The notes under the pieces were generated by a model. It was not told the DNA's origin. It searched no databases and saw only the letters and a list, made by a program, of their open reading frames with translations. From an uncultured Clostridia bacterium (GTDB lineage Bacteria; Bacillota; Clostridia; Christensenellales; CALWSW01), in the NCBI GenBank assembly GCA_937874755.1, contig CALNBC010000078.1:1-5821 (forward strand): a stretch of DNA of 5,821 nucleotides, read 5' to 3'. Of this stretch, positions 1-5,686 are shown piece by piece. The translations under genes were made by a program, and so were the position numbers. Each line of letters begins with the position of its first letter. Position 1 is the stretch's first letter.

Positions 1-55
1 GTTTACGAATCCGCAACGGTTACAGGTCTGGCTGCTGGGGAAGAAGCGGTCTACT
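1..55 (-). pseudogene. tnpB fragment at the window edge
   Basis: The 55 bases are the exact reverse complement of 5331-5385 inside copy 2 tnpB, and identity stops at base 56. Read on the minus strand they encode VDRFFPSSQTCNRCGFVN, the start of the TnpB zinc finger. Copy 1 differs at many positions here, so this is copy 2-type sequence. The match begins immediately after a TTTAT (60 to 56, minus strand), the target motif of these elements. Either a third, 5'-truncated element lies beyond the left edge, or this is the overlap left by an assembler at a repeat boundary; 55 is a common k-mer size. Both can be true together. No complete gene is present. Confidence 0.75.
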
Positions 56-157: not shown

Positions 158-604
158 TCAGGCGATATTTTCTGCGTTGCCCATAATCTTGTCGAAGATG
201 ACCAGCGCCCAGCCGTGCAGTTTGTACACACGCCGTATCCCGATGCCCATCTGTTCGGCCACCTGCCGCCATGTCAGGCCGTCAATGTAATATCTGTACA
301 GCACCTCTCGATAACGCTCTCGCGGAATCAGGGCGATGATATCACGGGCCGTCTTGCGTCTGTCGACAAACTCATCCACCGCGTCGTTGGCTCTGCCCAT
401 CAGCTGGTGCTCGCGCTCATAGTCAATCATGGCACAGACATTGTCCTCTACCCTGCTGCGCTGGCTTGTGCCGCTGATGCGTGATGCCTCGCGCTTGCCG
501 GTGCCGTAGCCCGCCGCCTCACGGTAATGCTCTAAGCGGCTGATGTGCCTGTCCGCGTCCGTGTTCGCTCGCCTGACTGATTGCAGGAACTCTTTAGCCG
601 TCAT
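158..604 (-). CDS. DUF1492/ArpU-like phage sigma-region-4 regulator
   Basis: This 148-residue protein is probably a phage transcription regulator of the DUF1492/ArpU type. The N-terminus (MTAKEFLQSVRRAN, then a heptad-like helix to about residue 35) is typical of that family. The C-terminal third contains a sigma-70 region 4-like helix-turn-helix, about residues 97-135 (REVLYRYYIDGLTWRQVAEQ followed by MGIGIRRVYKLHGWAL). In many Bacillota phages this gene is the last before the packaging genes and is linked to late transcription. Here it ends its gene run and is followed by a consensus promoter, which fits. The start is the ATG preceded by GGGGTGAAGAG. No frameshift or missing segment is visible. 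The family call rests on pattern recognition, not a search; the target promoter is inference. Confidence 0.75.
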   Translation of the reverse strand: MTAKEFLQSVRRANTDADRHISRLEHYREAAGYGTGKREASRISGTSQRSRVEDNVCAMIDYEREHQLMGRANDAVDEFVDRRKTARDIIALIPRERYREVLYRYYIDGLTWRQVAEQMGIGIRRVYKLHGWALVIFDKIMGNAENIA

Positions 605-2174: not shown

Positions 2175-2292
2175 TTGACACTCCCCACGGCTAAAGCCGG
2201 GGGATTCTTGGTTCTTCGAGCGTCGCCCCTGTTTGGTCTTACATGCTCTCCCCAAGCGTAAATTCCCGTGCGTCCCACGGTACTCGTTTTTG
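2155..2292 (-). ncRNA. Copy 1 omega RNA (reRNA) with guide
   Basis: TnpB RNAs of this family derive from the tnpB 3' end plus the right end, with the flank beyond the element as guide. After the tnpB stop the minus strand has a stem CCGTG-GGACG-CACGG (2280-2266), then TTACGCT (2261-2255) pairing with AGC-AT-GTAA (2247-2239), then the right-end hairpin (2203-2183). Both inner stems are shared with copy 2, the first with compensatory base changes. The predicted guide is the phage flank GCGGGGGTTGCGCCCTGGGA (2174-2155). The 5' end of the RNA is not known and probably lies inside tnpB. Confidence 0.65.
2175..2207 (-). repeat. Copy 1 right end: guide, hairpin, TCAA cleavage site
   Basis: On the minus strand GAAT (2207-2204) precedes a stem CCCC-CGGC, loop TTTA, GCCG-T-GGGG (2203-2183) with one bulged T, then AGTG and TCAA (2178-2175). 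In IS608 the right-end guide is GAAT and the cleavage site TCAA, so the arrangement is the same and the element end is placed after TCAA at 2175. Confidence 0.85.
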
Positions 2293-3411
2293 TTAAGCAA
2301 CACTTAATATTCTTAACCCTTCATCTAAAATATTCTTTGCAGCGTTTACGTCTCTGTCGTGATGCGTGCCGCACTTTGGACAGCCCCACTCTCTAACGGC
2401 AAGATTCTTCGTGTCAGAGTTCTTGTAGCCACAAGAGTTGCATGTTTGGCTTGACGGGTAGAACCTGTCTACTTTGACAAGTTCTTTCCCATACCAATTG
2501 CACTTGTACTCCAACTGTCTGGCAATCTCGCCCCACGCTGCGTCGCCGACCGCCTTCGCAAGCCTGTGATTTTTGACCATGTTCTTGGGCATGAGCGTTT
2601 CCATCGCAATCAAGTCATAGTCACGCACAAGTGATGTTGTCACCTTGTGTGCGTTATCAAGTCTTTGGTTTGCAATGTGCTCGTGCAACCTCGCCACTTT
2701 GATTCTCGCCTTTTCTCTGTTGTTACTACCCTTTGATTTTCGGGATAGCCTACGTTGGAGTTTTGCAAGTTTCTTCTGTGACTTGTTGAAGTGCTTTGGG
2801 TTTGCGAAGTGCTGATTATCTGATGTAATAGCGAGTTCCTTCAGCCCAAGATCAACGCCAACTATTGCACCGGCTCTTTCCATCGGTTGAATATCAACGT
2901 CTGTACACAAGACGGACACGAAATACTTCCCGCTTGGATTCTGTGATACGTTTGCAGATATGATACGCCCTTCTATCTGTTTAGATACTCTGCACTTGAT
3001 GTTACCAAGTTTCGGTAACCTGACATACTTGTCAAACAAGCGGATATTTGAACCCACTGCCTTACTCTTGAATGACTTGCGATTATCACGTTTACTTTTA
3101 AATCTTGGATACCCAGGCTTTCCACCACTCTTTACCCTACGGAAGAAGTTTTGGTACGCAATATCCAAATCGTTCAAAGATGACTGAAGCGCGGTTGCGT
3201 CAACCTCTCGTAACCAATCCTTAACCTTTTTATGCGATGTTAAATCGGAAGAACATGCGTAGTAGTTGAACGTAGCCTTATCAGATTCGTATTTCTCTTT
3301 CCGCATAGCAAGATAGTAGTTATACACATAGCGAGTACACCCAAATGTTTTTTGAATTAGTTCTTCTTGTGTCTTGTTTGGATAGATCCTAAACTTGTAC
3401 GCTTTTTCCAT
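2293..3411 (-). CDS. tnpB: TnpB RNA-guided nuclease, intact
   Basis: This 372-residue protein is a full-length TnpB, the RNA-guided DNA nuclease ancestral to Cas12. The N-terminal half (KAYKFRIYPNKTQEELIQKT onward) forms the wedge/REC-like part. The split RuvC has D187 in VGVDLG, E271 in AMETL and D354 in HDRDVNAAKN, and the zinc finger uses C324, C327, C344 and C347. Every catalytic and zinc residue is present. I chose the ATG at 3411: an AGGTGAT overlapping the tnpA stop lies four bases before it, whereas the GTG nine bases upstream has no such site. It follows tnpA by nine bases in one operon. TnpB favours retention of the element by cutting the empty site; the motif it would read is probably TTTAT. 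Confidence 0.93.
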   Translation of the reverse strand: MEKAYKFRIYPNKTQEELIQKTFGCTRYVYNYYLAMRKEKYESDKATFNYYACSSDLTSHKKVKDWLREVDATALQSSLNDLDIAYQNFFRRVKSGGKPGYPRFKSKRDNRKSFKSKAVGSNIRLFDKYVRLPKLGNIKCRVSKQIEGRIISANVSQNPSGKYFVSVLCTDVDIQPMERAGAIVGVDLGLKELAITSDNQHFANPKHFNKSQKKLAKLQRRLSRKSKGSNNREKARIKVARLHEHIANQRLDNAHKVTTSLVRDYDLIAMETLMPKNMVKNHRLAKAVGDAAWGEIARQLEYKCNWYGKELVKVDRFYPSSQTCNSCGYKNSDTKNLAVREWGCPKCGTHHDRDVNAAKNILDEGLRILSVA

Positions 3412-3420
3412 GTGTATCAC

Positions 3421-3822
3421 CTACTTTCTTTGAGATGTTTTCTGGTTTTCAACATACTTCCTGATTGCCTCCAACGGCGCTCCGCCCACGGTTGATACAA
3501 AGTAAGAGTTTGTCCAGAGAGTTGGAAGTTTTGATGTTAAGTCCTTAAATTCACCTCGCAGGTAAAACGATGTGACCCCCTTGATGTGCTTGACCGCCCT
3601 GTGAATCCCGAATTGCGGGTCTACCTCAAGAATCAAATGCACGTGGTCTGGCATGACTTCCATTTGAATTATATCGACCTGTTTTTCCAAACACGCACTT
3701 TTAATCAACTCCTTTAAGCGTGTTTCGACATCCTCTACGAGAACCTTGCGTCGATATTTTGGACACCATACCACATGGTATTTGCATGAGTAGACCACAT
3801 TGTTGTTAGATTTGTAGTCCAC
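3421..3822 (-). CDS. tnpA: TnpA Y1 HUH transposase, copy 1
   Basis: A 133-residue IS200-type transposase, the normal length. The HUH motif is H60-V-H62 in MPDHVHL, and the catalytic tyrosine is Y123 in KYVENQ, with Q127 as the probable extra metal ligand. TnpA acts as a dimer on single-stranded DNA, cutting 3' of the left-flank target and the right-end TCAA. The GTG start (GTGGACTAC) lies six bases after a TATAAT, so the message is leaderless or nearly so and has no ribosome binding site. By hand count 106 of 133 residues match the copy 2 protein. It is probably functional, although its left end is now displaced by copy 2. Confidence 0.93.
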   Translation of the reverse strand: MDYKSNNNVVYSCKYHVVWCPKYRRKVLVEDVETRLKELIKSACLEKQVDIIQMEVMPDHVHLILEVDPQFGIHRAVKHIKGVTSFYLRGEFKDLTSKLPTLWTNSYFVSTVGGAPLEAIRKYVENQKTSQRK

Positions 3823-3828
3823 AAATGT

Positions 3829-3859
3829 ATTATACCACTTAGACGTATCTATTAAACAA
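3829..3859 (-). promoter_or_regulatory. tnpA promoter, copy 1
   Basis: A perfect -10 TATAAT lies at 3834-3829 on the minus strand, six bases before the GTG of tnpA. The -35 is poor (GTTTAA at 17 bases or TTGTTT at 19). It survives because copy 2 inserted 20 bases further upstream. Weak transcription is usual for this family. Confidence 0.5.
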
Positions 3860-3874
3860 TATTTTCAAAAACAA

Positions 3875-3917
3875 TTTATCAGATAACGCCGTAAAACCCC
3901 TGCCTTTAGGCATGGGG
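3875..3917 (+). repeat. Copy 2 left end: TTTAT target and hairpin
   Basis: TTTAT (3875-3879) is the host target and the element starts at C3880. After a 17-base spacer come CCCC-TGCC, loop TTTA, GGCA-T-GGGG (3897-3917), an 8-bp stem with a bulged T. The bases just 5' of the stem (AAAA, 3893-3896) are where the guide that reads the target lies in IS608. Copy 1's left end (5686-5645) has the same layout after its own TTTAT. Confidence 0.85.
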
Positions 3918-3951
3918 ATATAAGGCGCAAAAAGAAATTTTCCAAAAACTG

Positions 3952-3980
3952 TTGCATTAGATAAAGCATTGTAGTATAAT
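3952..3980 (+). promoter_or_regulatory. tnpA promoter, copy 2
   Basis: TTGCAT (3952-3957), a 17-base spacer and a perfect TATAAT (3975-3980) lie just before tnpA. The expected start falls on or next to the GTG at 3987, so the transcript would be leaderless. Spacing to the start codon is identical in copy 1. Confidence 0.6.
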
Positions 3981-3986
3981 ACAAGA

Positions 3987-4388
3987 GTGGACTACAAATC
4001 TAACTCCAACGTGGTCTACTCCTGCAAGTATCATGTGGTCTGGTGTCCTAAGTATCGACGCAAAGTCCTCGTTGGAGAAGTCGAAAGCCGTCTGAAGGAG
4101 TTGATATTACAAGCGGCTTCTGAAATCCAAGTCGATATAATTGAAATGGAAATCATGCCAGACCATGTGCATTTGCTGATGAAAGTAGACCCGCAATTTG
4201 GTATTCACAAGGCGGTTAAGTACATCAAAGGAATCACGTCCTACCATCTTCGTAAAGAGTTCAAACACCTTACAACCAAACTACCAACGCTGTGGACTAA
4301 CTCATATTTTGTGTCTACAGTTGGCGGAGCACCACTTGAGATAATCAAGGAGTACATTGAGAGTCAAAAGACTTCGCAAAGAAAGTAG
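3987..4388 (+). CDS. tnpA: TnpA Y1 HUH transposase, copy 2
   Basis: A complete 133-residue single-strand transposase. The HUH motif is H60-V-H62 (MPDHVHL) and the catalytic tyrosine is Y123 (EYIESQ, Q127). The GTG start is the first codon of the conserved DYKSN-NVVYSCKYHVVW N-terminus and has no ribosome binding site. The stop TAG overlaps the AGGTGAT that serves tnpB. It differs from the copy 1 protein at 27 positions by hand count, none in the catalytic motifs, so the two are related but separate lineages and not a recent duplication. It probably still acts on both elements, whose end hairpins and cleavage motifs are nearly the same. Confidence 0.93.
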   Translation: MDYKSNSNVVYSCKYHVVWCPKYRRKVLVGEVESRLKELILQAASEIQVDIIEMEIMPDHVHLLMKVDPQFGIHKAVKYIKGITSYHLRKEFKHLTTKLPTLWTNSYFVSTVGGAPLEIIKEYIESQKTSQRK

Positions 4389-4397
4389 GTGATACAC

Positions 4398-5511
4398 ATG
4401 GAAAAAGCGTACAAGTTTAGGATCTATCCAAACAAGGCACAAGAAGAACTGATTCAGAAAACATTCGGCTGTACGCGCTATGTGTATAACTATTACCTTG
4501 TGAAGCGCAAGACCGCATATGAGGAACGGAAAGAAACTCTCAATTACAACGCTTGTTCTGCCGACTTGACACAGATGAAGAAAGCAACGGAATGGCTCAA
4601 AGAAGTGGATGCTACTGCATTACAATCTAGTATCCGCGACCTTGACGAGGCGTATCAGAACTTCTTCCGCAGGGTAAAGAACGGAGAGAAACCAGGATAT
4701 CCGCATTTCAAAAGCAAGAAAGATAACAAGAAGGCATTTAAAAGTAAGTGTGTTGGAACAAATATCAAAGTTCTTGACAAGCACATTCAACTACCAAAGC
4801 TAGGGCTTGTAGAATGCCGCGTCTCAAAGCAAGTTGAAGGCCGCATTCTCTCTGCCACCGTAAGCCAGAACCCAAGCGGCAAGTATTTCGTTTCCGTTCT
4901 CTGCACCGACGTTGAGTGGCAACCGCTTGACCCCACAGGAGCCATTGTAGGGATAGACCTCGGACTAAAAGAAATTGCCATCACCTCTGACGGACAACAC
5001 ATTCCAAACCCATCTCGCCAAGTCACAGAAGAAACTTGCCAAACTCCAACGGCAGCTATCCCGAAAACCAAAGGATAGTGCAAACCGTGAGAAGGCGAGA
5101 ATTAAAGTGGCGCGTCTGCACGAGCACATTGCCAACCAGCGTCTTGACAAAATTCACAAGATGACTACCATCCTTGTTCAAGACTATGACCTGATTGCAA
5201 TGGAAACGCTGATGCCAAAGAACATGGTGAAGAACCGCAAACTTGCAAAGGCAATCAGCGACGCGGCGTGGGGCGAAGTGGCAAGGCAATTGGAATACAA
5301 AACGAGATGGTACGGCAAGTGTCAAGTTAAAGTAGACCGCTTCTTCCCCAGCAGCCAGACCTGTAACCGTTGCGGATTCGTAAACAAGGCCACGAAAGAC
5401 CTTGCTATCCGTGAATGGGATTGTCCGCAATGCGGGGAACACAATGACCGCGATATAAATGCGGCAAAGAACATCCTAGATGAAGGTGTGCGGATTGTAA
5501 ACGCCGCCTAA
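4398..5511 (+). pseudogene. tnpB: TnpB, frameshifted by a 5-base deletion
   Basis: The start ATG at 4398 follows AGGTGAT, as in copy 1. The frame is sound to N204-P205 (5007-5012, keeping D187 in VGIDLG), then shifts and stops at 5078. The remainder is open in another frame from the LAKSQKKLAKLQ region to the stop at 5511 and keeps METL, the four zinc cysteines and the DRDINAAKN aspartate. Compared with copy 1, 7 bases replace 12 between the NP and KSQKK codons, a net loss of 5. Restoring AAGCA would give NPKHLAKSQ. The RuvC aspartate and glutamate are therefore on separate peptides and nuclease activity should be lost. The rest lacks other damage, so the lesion is recent or an assembly error. 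Confidence 0.88.
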
Positions 5512-5648
5512 AATAGATTTGTACCGTAGGACATGCGGGAAGTTACGCTTCTGGACAGCATGTAAGACGCAAGGGCGCGACGCTGAATGAAGGAAGAATC
5601 CCCTGGCTTTAGCCATGGGGAGTGTCAATATTGTAGCCTTATATCCCC
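5512..5648 (+). ncRNA. Copy 2 omega RNA (reRNA) with guide
   Basis: Downstream of tnpB the stem CCGTA-GGACA-TGCGG (5524-5538) corresponds to copy 1's CCGTG-GGACG-CACGG, with paired changes that keep the helix. TTACGCT (5543-5549) pairs with AGC (5557-5559) and GTAA (5562-5565) around an AT bulge, and the right-end hairpin (5600-5620) follows. The scaffold ends at TCAA; the predicted guide is TATTGTAGCCTTATATCCCC (5629-5648), which is copy 1 left-end sequence. With its own TnpB broken, it would need TnpB from copy 1 or elsewhere. The 5' boundary is not determined. Confidence 0.65.
5596..5628 (+). repeat. Copy 2 right end: guide, hairpin, TCAA cleavage site
   Basis: GAAT (5596-5599), stem CCCC-TGGC, loop TTTA, GCCA-T-GGGG (5600-5620), AGTG, then TCAA (5625-5628). 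The layout equals that of copy 1, with the C-G pair at the fifth stem position replaced by T-A, a compensated change. Confidence 0.85.
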
Positions 5649-5686
5649 ATGCCTGAAGGCAGGGGTTTTACGGCTGTCATGATAAA
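5629..5686 (-). repeat. Displaced left end of copy 1
   Basis: On the minus strand TTTAT (5686-5682) is followed by CATGACAGCCGTAAAA and a bulged-T hairpin CCCC-TGCC, loop TTCA, GGCA-T-GGGG (5665-5645), then ATATAAGGC. This matches copy 2's left end (3875-3926) nearly base for base but in the opposite direction, and it stops at the copy 2 right boundary. It is the missing distal part of copy 1, not a third element. Confidence 0.85.

What the first reader, a model, noticed from the sequence alone, without database searches (positions are those of the whole stretch)
2175..5681. One IS200/IS605 element nested inside the left end of its relative, head to head
Copy 2 (3880-5628, plus) splits copy 1 (minus) between its left-end hairpin and its tnpA promoter. 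Joining 3879 to 5629 restores a copy 1 left end that lines up with copy 2's own: TTTAT, spacer, GCCGTAAAACCCCTGCC, bulged-T hairpin, ATATAAGGC, then TATAAT and GTG at matching distance. The restored lengths are 1758 and 1749 bases. Copy 1 is therefore older, and what looks like three ends is two elements. The copy 1 ends are intact, so a 3507-base composite on one strand could still be substrate for TnpA.
Basis: partly seen in the sequence, partly recalled or inferred. Interest (0 to 1): 0.75.

Follow-up and report, generated by a model that had tools for sequence, protein, structure and literature searches.

The report
Jumping gene nested backwards in relative
One bacterial jumping gene sits backwards inside the left end of a relative, and across 49 related elements the short landing sequence is largely erased from one strand, the one that these elements are thought to move as, which likely forces such nesting to be backwards.

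Summary
Copy 2 (3880-5628, +, 1749 nt) interrupts copy 1 (minus) between its left-end hairpin (5636-5674) and its tnpA promoter. Joining 3879 to 5629 gives a 1758-nt copy 1 whose hairpin-to-tnpA gap (64 nt) fits 31 uninterrupted relatives (43-105 nt). Both are IS608-like IS200/IS605 elements, 72% identical; copy 2's tnpB is frameshifted. IS605-in-IS605 nests are already published, so the nest itself is ordinary. What seems new is why it is head to head. Copy 2's guide (AAAA) reads TTAT; copy 1 has 0 TTAT on its top strand and 11 on the bottom. In 49 non-redundant elements the element's own target is the most depleted of 256 tetramers on the top strand (TTAT-users 30 observed, 153 expected; TTAC-users 2, 65), while the other group's tetramer is at expectation and the bottom strand near it. 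Likely cause: protection of the excised single-strand circle from inserting into itself. Caveat: bases 1-55 exactly repeat 5331-5385 in reverse complement, an assembly-graph mark inside copy 2.

The parts
2175..2207 (-). Right end of copy 1 (RE1): guide GAAT, hairpin, cleavage motif TCAA at the outer edge
   Evidence: Pattern and profile hits; fold; GAAT/TCAA as in IS608 (PMC5934647, passages)
2293..3420 (-). tnpB of copy 1, intact, 375 aa
   Evidence: OrfB_IS605, Cas12f1-like_TNB, HTH_OrfB_IS605; solved TnpB chains 8h1j and 8bf8, E about 8e-105
3421..3822 (-). tnpA of copy 1, intact, 133 aa, Y1/HUH transposase
   Evidence: Y1_Tnp; ISHp608 transposase 2a6m, E 1.5e-51
3823..3879 (-). Inner part of copy 1's left end, with the TATAAT of its tnpA promoter
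   Evidence: Alignment with copy 2; sequence
3875..3879 (+). TTTAT on copy 1's bottom strand: target of the copy 2 insertion
   Evidence: Sequence; guide-target pairing in relatives
3880..3926 (+). Left end of copy 2 (LE2): spacer, hairpin 3888-3926 with guide AAAA at 3893-3896
   Evidence: Profile hit; fold
3987..4388 (+). tnpA of copy 2, intact, 133 aa, 106 of 133 residues as in copy 1
4389..5511 (+). tnpB of copy 2, frameshifted (open frames 4389-5078 and 4975-5511)
5596..5628 (+). Right end of copy 2 (RE2): guide GAAT, hairpin, TCAA at 5625-5628
5629..5681 (-). Outer part of copy 1's left end (LE1): hairpin 5636-5674; also where copy 2's predicted omegaRNA guide would be read
   Evidence: the guide reading is inferred from known TnpB systems
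5682..5686 (-). TTTAT flanking copy 1: its own left target
   Evidence: Sequence; alignment
1..55 (-). Exact reverse complement of 5331-5385: piece of a further tnpB copy, or an assembly-graph overlap

Best explanation
Copy 2, an IS200/IS605 element, lies inside the left end of its relative copy 1, directly 3' of a TTAT on copy 1's bottom strand; it likely landed there as a single-stranded circle aimed by its AAAA guide, and its head-to-head orientation was likely forced because copy 1 has no TTAT on its top strand. Shown: the anatomy, the guide-target match, and the count of 0 against 11 TTAT. Shown across 49 elements: each group's own target tetramer is strongly depleted on the top strand, whichever tetramer its guide reads. 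Inferred: selection removes top-strand target sites because the excised circle is that strand and would insert into itself; the bottom strand is not in the circle and stays open, so a same-code sibling can enter only there, i.e. antiparallel. Predicted, untested: copy 2's omegaRNA guide now matches copy 1's left end, so a TnpB loaded with it would cut uninterrupted copy 1 siblings next to TTTAT.
For: Nest: joined left end aligns and its gap fits 31 relatives. Guide code: TTAC with AAAG in 19 of 19, TTAT with AAAA 22, AATA 6, AAAC 1, ATAT 1 of 30. Target sites: copy 1 top 0, bottom 11; copy 2 top 0, bottom 9; zero on top was met in 0 of 300 (copy 1) and 2 of 300 (copy 2) synonymous shuffles. 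Group: TTAT-users (30) TTAT top 30 vs 152.9 expected, TTAC top 109 vs 104.1; TTAC-users (19) TTAC top 2 vs 65.1, TTAT top 156 vs 163.0; own word rank 1 of 256 in both; own top below own bottom in 49 of 49. 1000 synonymous shuffles: 149.2, minimum 120, and 67.4, minimum 43. 33 of 49 elements have no own target on top, 2.4 expected; the longest flanking ORFs show no TTAT deficit. Two TGAC/CAAG users: TGAC 0 and 0 on top, 13 and 6 on bottom.
Against: No uninterrupted copy 1 and no reads were available. The contig bears a 55-nt graph mark inside copy 2. Among TTAT-users 3 of 30 have more own than other words on top (L085, L009, L222). Synonymous shuffles also give a milder bottom-strand deficit of the own word (314 vs 374.5, z -6.0; 154 vs 174.1, z -2.4), which the trinucleotide model does not show as strongly (-1.9, -0.6). 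In flanking ORFs of TTAC-users TTAC is 66 vs 81.6, z -1.7, rank 7 of 256. Elements are related: on the TnpA tree 8 label changes, only 2 forced by well-supported branches, and the independent-pairs test on those had 2 pairs and no power. False cleavage at the left end or attack by siblings could also act on the top strand only.
Confidence: 0.75

Rival explanations
1. The nest is an assembly misjoin: another tnpB copy shares a 55-mer with copy 2, and the assembler joined the wrong right half (from 5386 on) to copy 2's left half.
For: Bases 1-55 are an exact reverse complement of 5331-5385 and the match stops at 55, as expected at a k=55 assembly-graph vertex (recalled). The second junction was not found in viral contigs (0 matches).
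Against: The two junctions complement each other: one piece of copy 1 ends 7 nt after its hairpin, the other starts 57 nt before tnpA, and together they give a family-typical gap; the target TTTAT and the TCAA end are exact. No second copy of the right part of copy 2 is in this genome.
Confidence: 0.1
2. The left end at 5629-5681 belongs to a third element, or an inversion between the inverted left-end repeats made the present order; copy 1 lost its own left end.
For: The left ends are nearly identical and would not tell elements apart.
Against: No third set of ends or genes is in the window; an inversion between the two hairpins would leave copy 1 with a backward left end, whereas the present order gives both copies correct ones (reasoning).
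Confidence: 0.05
3. The nest is real but its head-to-head orientation is chance or set by the replication fork, not by the lack of sites.
For: One nest only; no other sibling nest was seen among 111 loci with end hits.
Against: TTAT sites are 0 on top and 11 on bottom, so a parallel insertion by a TTAT-reading element had no exact site.
Confidence: 0.1
4. The top-strand depletion comes from false left cleavage within the element, or from siblings attacking the top strand on a lagging template, rather than from self-insertion of the circle.
For: Both would act on the top strand only; these elements enter lagging-strand templates (PMC6006769, passages).
Against: The deficit is even along the element (own top by thirds 15, 10, 5 of 69.6, 56.9, 22.6 expected; 1, 0, 1 of 18.0, 32.9, 16.4), against a cause confined to the left end. 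Sibling attack is not excluded.
Confidence: 0.3
5. The depletion is a codon-usage or composition effect with no bearing on transposition.
For: The elements are 83% coding.
Against: Synonymous shuffles keeping protein and codon counts do not reproduce it; it also holds outside ORFs (own top 3 vs bottom 77; 1 vs 36); it switches with the target; TTAT is not depleted in flanking ORFs.
Confidence: 0.03

Closest known systems
IS608 (ISHp608, Helicobacter pylori), IS200/IS605 family
   Same: TnpA sequence (2a6m, E 1.5e-51), subterminal hairpins, GAAT/TCAA right end, left guide next to the hairpin, insertion 3' of a tetranucleotide (PMC5934647, passages)
   Different: Target TTAT with guide AAAA instead of TTAC with AAAG; own-target depletion was not tested here on IS608 itself
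IS605-type elements inserted into IS605-type elements in Haloquadratum walsbyi
   Same: One IS605-type element inside another; most MGE hits lie outside the ORFs. 5 of 192 listed element-in-element events (PMC3119063, Table 5 seen in passages)
   Different: Orientation and target code of those 5 were not seen; here the pair is antiparallel with a same-code explanation
TnpB-omegaRNA retention and homing at IS insertion sites
   Same: Guide read from the right flank, TAM equal to TnpA's target (PMC11870625, passages)
   Different: Copy 2's guide would read a sibling transposon's left end, and its own TnpB is frameshifted
Self-integration avoidance in other transposons (phage Mu immunity; suicidal autointegration of Sleeping Beauty and piggyBac)
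   Same: The problem: a transposon that attacks itself is lost (PMC2837660 and PMC3952818, abstracts' beginnings in the listing)
   Different: Here the means would be removal of the target word from one strand, not a protein

Membership tests
IS200/IS605 family, copies 1 and 2 | Y1/HUH TnpA | tested here: met
   Y1_Tnp in both copies; ISHp608 TnpA match for copy 1
IS200/IS605 family, copies 1 and 2 | Accessory TnpB (in the IS605 group; not required for family membership) | tested here: met
   Intact in copy 1, frameshifted in copy 2
IS200/IS605 family, copies 1 and 2 | Subterminal imperfect hairpins at both ends, no terminal inverted repeats | tested here: met
   Folds of LE1, LE2, RE1, RE2; profile hits
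IS200/IS605 family, copies 1 and 2 | Guide next to the hairpin matches the flanking target; insertion 3' of it without target duplication | tested here: met
   AAAA with TTAT in both; code holds in 49 elements. No duplication seen at 3875-3879/5629 (sequence)
IS200/IS605 family, copies 1 and 2 | Single-strand transposition activity | not testable with these tools
   -
Composite of 3507 bases as a single transposable unit | Outer ends intact in sequence | tested here: met
   LE1 and RE1 complete
Composite of 3507 bases as a single transposable unit | Outer ends able to form their hairpins in the single strand | tested here: inconclusive
   LE1 hairpin kept; RE1 paired with RE2 over 31 of 33 nt in the minimum-energy fold; folding kinetics not modelled

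The most novel reading that the evidence does not exclude
IS200/IS605 elements carry a sequence-encoded self-immunity: each erases from its transposed strand the tetranucleotide that its own left guide reads, so its single-strand circle cannot attack itself. The bottom strand stays open, so relatives with the same code can invade it only antiparallel; when the guide changes, the erased word changes with it. The window's head-to-head nest is the visible outcome.
Probability: 0.65. Interest if true: 0.75.

Novelty: new variant of a known kind. Interest (0 to 1): 0.62.

Why it matters
It turns one nested transposon into a rule that can be checked from sequence alone in any IS200/IS605 element: the word missing from the top strand should reveal the target, and hence also the TnpB TAM, without knowing the insertion site. 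If the cause is self-insertion, it shows how a transposon whose target is set by base pairing could protect itself without an immunity protein, and predicts that a change of guide must be followed by changes throughout the element's body. That bears on the re-aiming of these elements as tools.

Tried and rejected
Empty site of copy 1: a 19-base pattern made of the two flanks hit 2 viral contigs, but both lie in a terminator with no other convincing similarity; rejected as chance. Relatives of the neighbouring phage-type gene are 24-30% identical in 9 viral contigs and 27.6% in one phage record, so no empty site could be read. The second junction and copy 1's right flank were not found in viral contigs (0 matches each). 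L084 looked like a second head-to-head pair, but what lies beside it is a recombinase-like gene with a copied right end, not a sibling element. Other sibling nests: of 111 loci with at least one end hit, 3 carry more than two (L031, L084, L211) and none is a sibling nest; loci are a few kb long, so wider nests would be missed. Rfam: MIR6217 at 3771-4038 (45.4 bits, gathering 110) most likely reflects the inverted repeat of the two tnpA starts; HPnc0580 at 5513-5602 (27.7, gathering 37) is weak. Phylogenetic correction of the depletion had no power. Two Deinococcus plasmid elements were fetched for other target codes; L241 was used, L242 was dropped because its ends were not clear to me. The relatives come from capped lists: best 80 of 204 genome-contig relatives, 35 and 43 viral loci, at most 30 loci each.
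Full report
WHAT IS THERE. The window is the whole contig C78 of a genome of 1,871,199 bases in 432 contigs, 71.8% complete (contig length). Two IS200/IS605 elements fill 2175-5681. Copy 1 (minus) has an intact tnpA (3421-3822) and tnpB (2293-3420). Copy 2 (plus) has an intact tnpA (3987-4388) and a frameshifted tnpB (open frames 4389-5078 and 4975-5511). Copy 1's TnpA matches the ISHp608 transposase (2a6m, E 1.5e-51) and its TnpB matches solved TnpB chains (8h1j, 8bf8). The two TnpAs share 106 of 133 residues. By region the DNA is 95% identical in the left-end hairpin, 94% in the right end, 76.5% in tnpA and 71.2% in tnpB. On a TnpA tree the two copies fall in one open group with L193 (support 81/78).

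THE NEST. Copy 2 begins right after TTTAT (3875-3879) and ends in TCAA (5625-5628). Joining 3879 and 5629 gives copy 1 a left end that aligns with copy 2's. Of 45 relatives examined, 31 have a left end of score 42 or more directly upstream of tnpA, with a gap of 43-105 nt, median 68 (the gap is measured to the start of the tblastn match). Joined copy 1 has 64 and copy 2 has 60. So copy 2 lies in the spacer between copy 1's left hairpin and its tnpA promoter, and copy 1 was there first. The direct control, an uninterrupted copy 1, was not found. In a further locus, L071, a transposase gene of another kind lies between left end and tnpA, so this spacer is hit elsewhere too.

THE GUIDE CODE. In IS608 the left target TTAC is read by a guide AAAG next to the hairpin, and TCAA by GAAT (PMC5934647, passages). 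In 49 non-redundant complete elements of this family, copies 1 and 2 included, TTAC goes with AAAG in 19 of 19, and TTAT goes with AAAA in 22, AATA in 6, AAAC in 1 and ATAT in 1 of 30. Both copies here are TTAT with AAAA. Two more elements (L089, and L241 from a Deinococcus plasmid) have TGAC and CAAG (assigned by eye). This fixes the ends of both copies and the target of the nested insertion.

WHY HEAD TO HEAD. Copy 1 has no TTAT on its top strand and 11 on its bottom strand; copy 2 has 0 and 9. An element that reads TTAT therefore has an exact site in copy 1 only on the bottom strand, which makes the pair antiparallel. I asked whether this is chance. From 226 loci scanned on both strands plus the two copies, 58 complete elements were taken; 24 left ends were dropped for lack of a right end within 1.2-2.3 kb and 2 for lack of TTAY at the left; 9 near-duplicates were then removed, leaving 49. 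On the top strand TTAT-users carry 30 TTAT against 152.9 expected from their trinucleotides, and TTAC-users 2 TTAC against 65.1; each is the most depleted of 256 tetramers in its group. The other group's word is at expectation (109 vs 104.1; 156 vs 163.0). On the bottom strand the own words are at 314 vs 348.9 and 154 vs 161.3. Own top is below own bottom in 49 of 49. In 1000 synonymous-codon shuffles the lowest values were 120 and 43 (means 149.2 and 67.4). The deficit is even along the element and also holds outside the ORFs. The longest flanking ORFs (46 and 29) show no TTAT deficit. In the two TGAC users TGAC is 0 and 0 on top, 13 and 6 on the bottom. 33 of 49 elements have no own target on top, where 2.4 are expected. 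A smaller first sample of 30 gave the same picture.

RESULTS AGAINST. Three TTAT-users have more TTAT than TTAC on top (L085, L009, L222) and four are level. Codon shuffles also show a milder bottom-strand deficit (z -6.0 and -2.4 for the own words; -3.3 for TTAT in TTAC-users). In flanking ORFs of TTAC-users TTAC is somewhat low (66 vs 81.6, z -1.7). The elements are related: on a TnpA tree of 48 of the 49 the target label needs 8 changes, only 2 forced by well-supported branches; the independent-pairs test there had 2 pairs, on average 1.6 the same way and none the other way, and cannot reach significance. All but L241 came from searches with copy 1's or copy 2's TnpA, tnpA-containing DNA or the ends' patterns, so the rule is tested in this part of the family only.

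HOW IT LIKELY WORKS (inferred). These elements move as a single-stranded circle (PMC6006769 and PMC2806898, passages). A target word on that strand would be a substrate for the element's own guide in the same molecule, so selection would remove it. The bottom strand is not in the circle. False left cleavage, or attack by siblings on a lagging-strand template, would also act on the top strand alone and are not excluded; the even spread of the deficit speaks against a purely left-end effect.

CONSEQUENCES FOR THE NEST. Copy 1's ends are intact in sequence, but in the predicted minimum-energy fold of the composite, on either strand, RE1 pairs with RE2 over 31 of 33 nt, while LE1 and LE2 keep their hairpins; copy 2 alone folds both of its ends. 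The composite would therefore likely be a poor substrate. Copy 2's omegaRNA guide would be read from 5629 on, i.e. from copy 1's left end next to TTTAT, so it would aim at uninterrupted copy 1 siblings; its own TnpB is broken, and use by copy 1's TnpB is untested. Since these elements enter lagging-strand templates, an antiparallel pair also suggests that the two insertions did not use the same strand of one fixed fork (inference). No other sibling nest was seen among 111 loci with end hits.

ASSEMBLY CAVEAT. Bases 1-55 are an exact reverse complement of 5331-5385 and the match ends at 55. That is what contig ends look like at a k=55 graph vertex (recalled). It suggests a further tnpB copy, truncated on its 5' side, at the contig's left edge, and means that the path through copy 2 was chosen by the assembler.

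WHAT IS KNOWN. IS605-in-IS605 nests are published: 5 of 192 element-in-element events in Haloquadratum (PMC3119063, passages). I found no report of own-target avoidance in this family in searches (listings; one paper, PMC5934647, checked by word search), in a library that lacks most subscription papers.

Noticed in passing
window 1-55 and 5331-5385: Exact 55-nt reverse-complement overlap at the contig start, joined to a terminator-like hairpin ending in TTTTTAT: a 5'-truncated further tnpB copy or a graph overlap.
   Followed up: partly
L003 (G000:C331) against L230: Two stretches at 99.1% and 99.6% identity, but C331 has 579 nt more directly after an element's right end. The extra stretch starts after TCAA and ends in TTAT, both TnpA cleavage motifs, as if a flank had been deleted from the right end to a target site, or the reverse.
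   Followed up: partly
L031 4603-4698: A right end directly followed by a second left end without tnpA behind it, i.e. a right-left junction in the chromosome.
   Followed up: partly
L071 1624-3001: A transposase-like gene of another kind (304 aa, looks like the IS1595/ISXO2 type, recalled, not searched) between an IS605 left end and its tnpA.
   Followed up: no
L084 187-230 and 3700-3743: The element's 44-nt right end is copied exactly, inverted, beside a 529-aa gene that looks like a large serine recombinase (by eye).
   Followed up: no
window 158-604, minus: Phage-type transcriptional regulator (phrog_36, Sigma70_r4_2), so copy 1 may sit in a prophage or phage remnant.
   Followed up: partly
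left ends of relatives, alignment: The outer three bases of the left hairpin appear to change together (GCC with GGC, GTC with GAC, GGC with GCC), which hints at a conserved outer stem; not counted.
   Followed up: no
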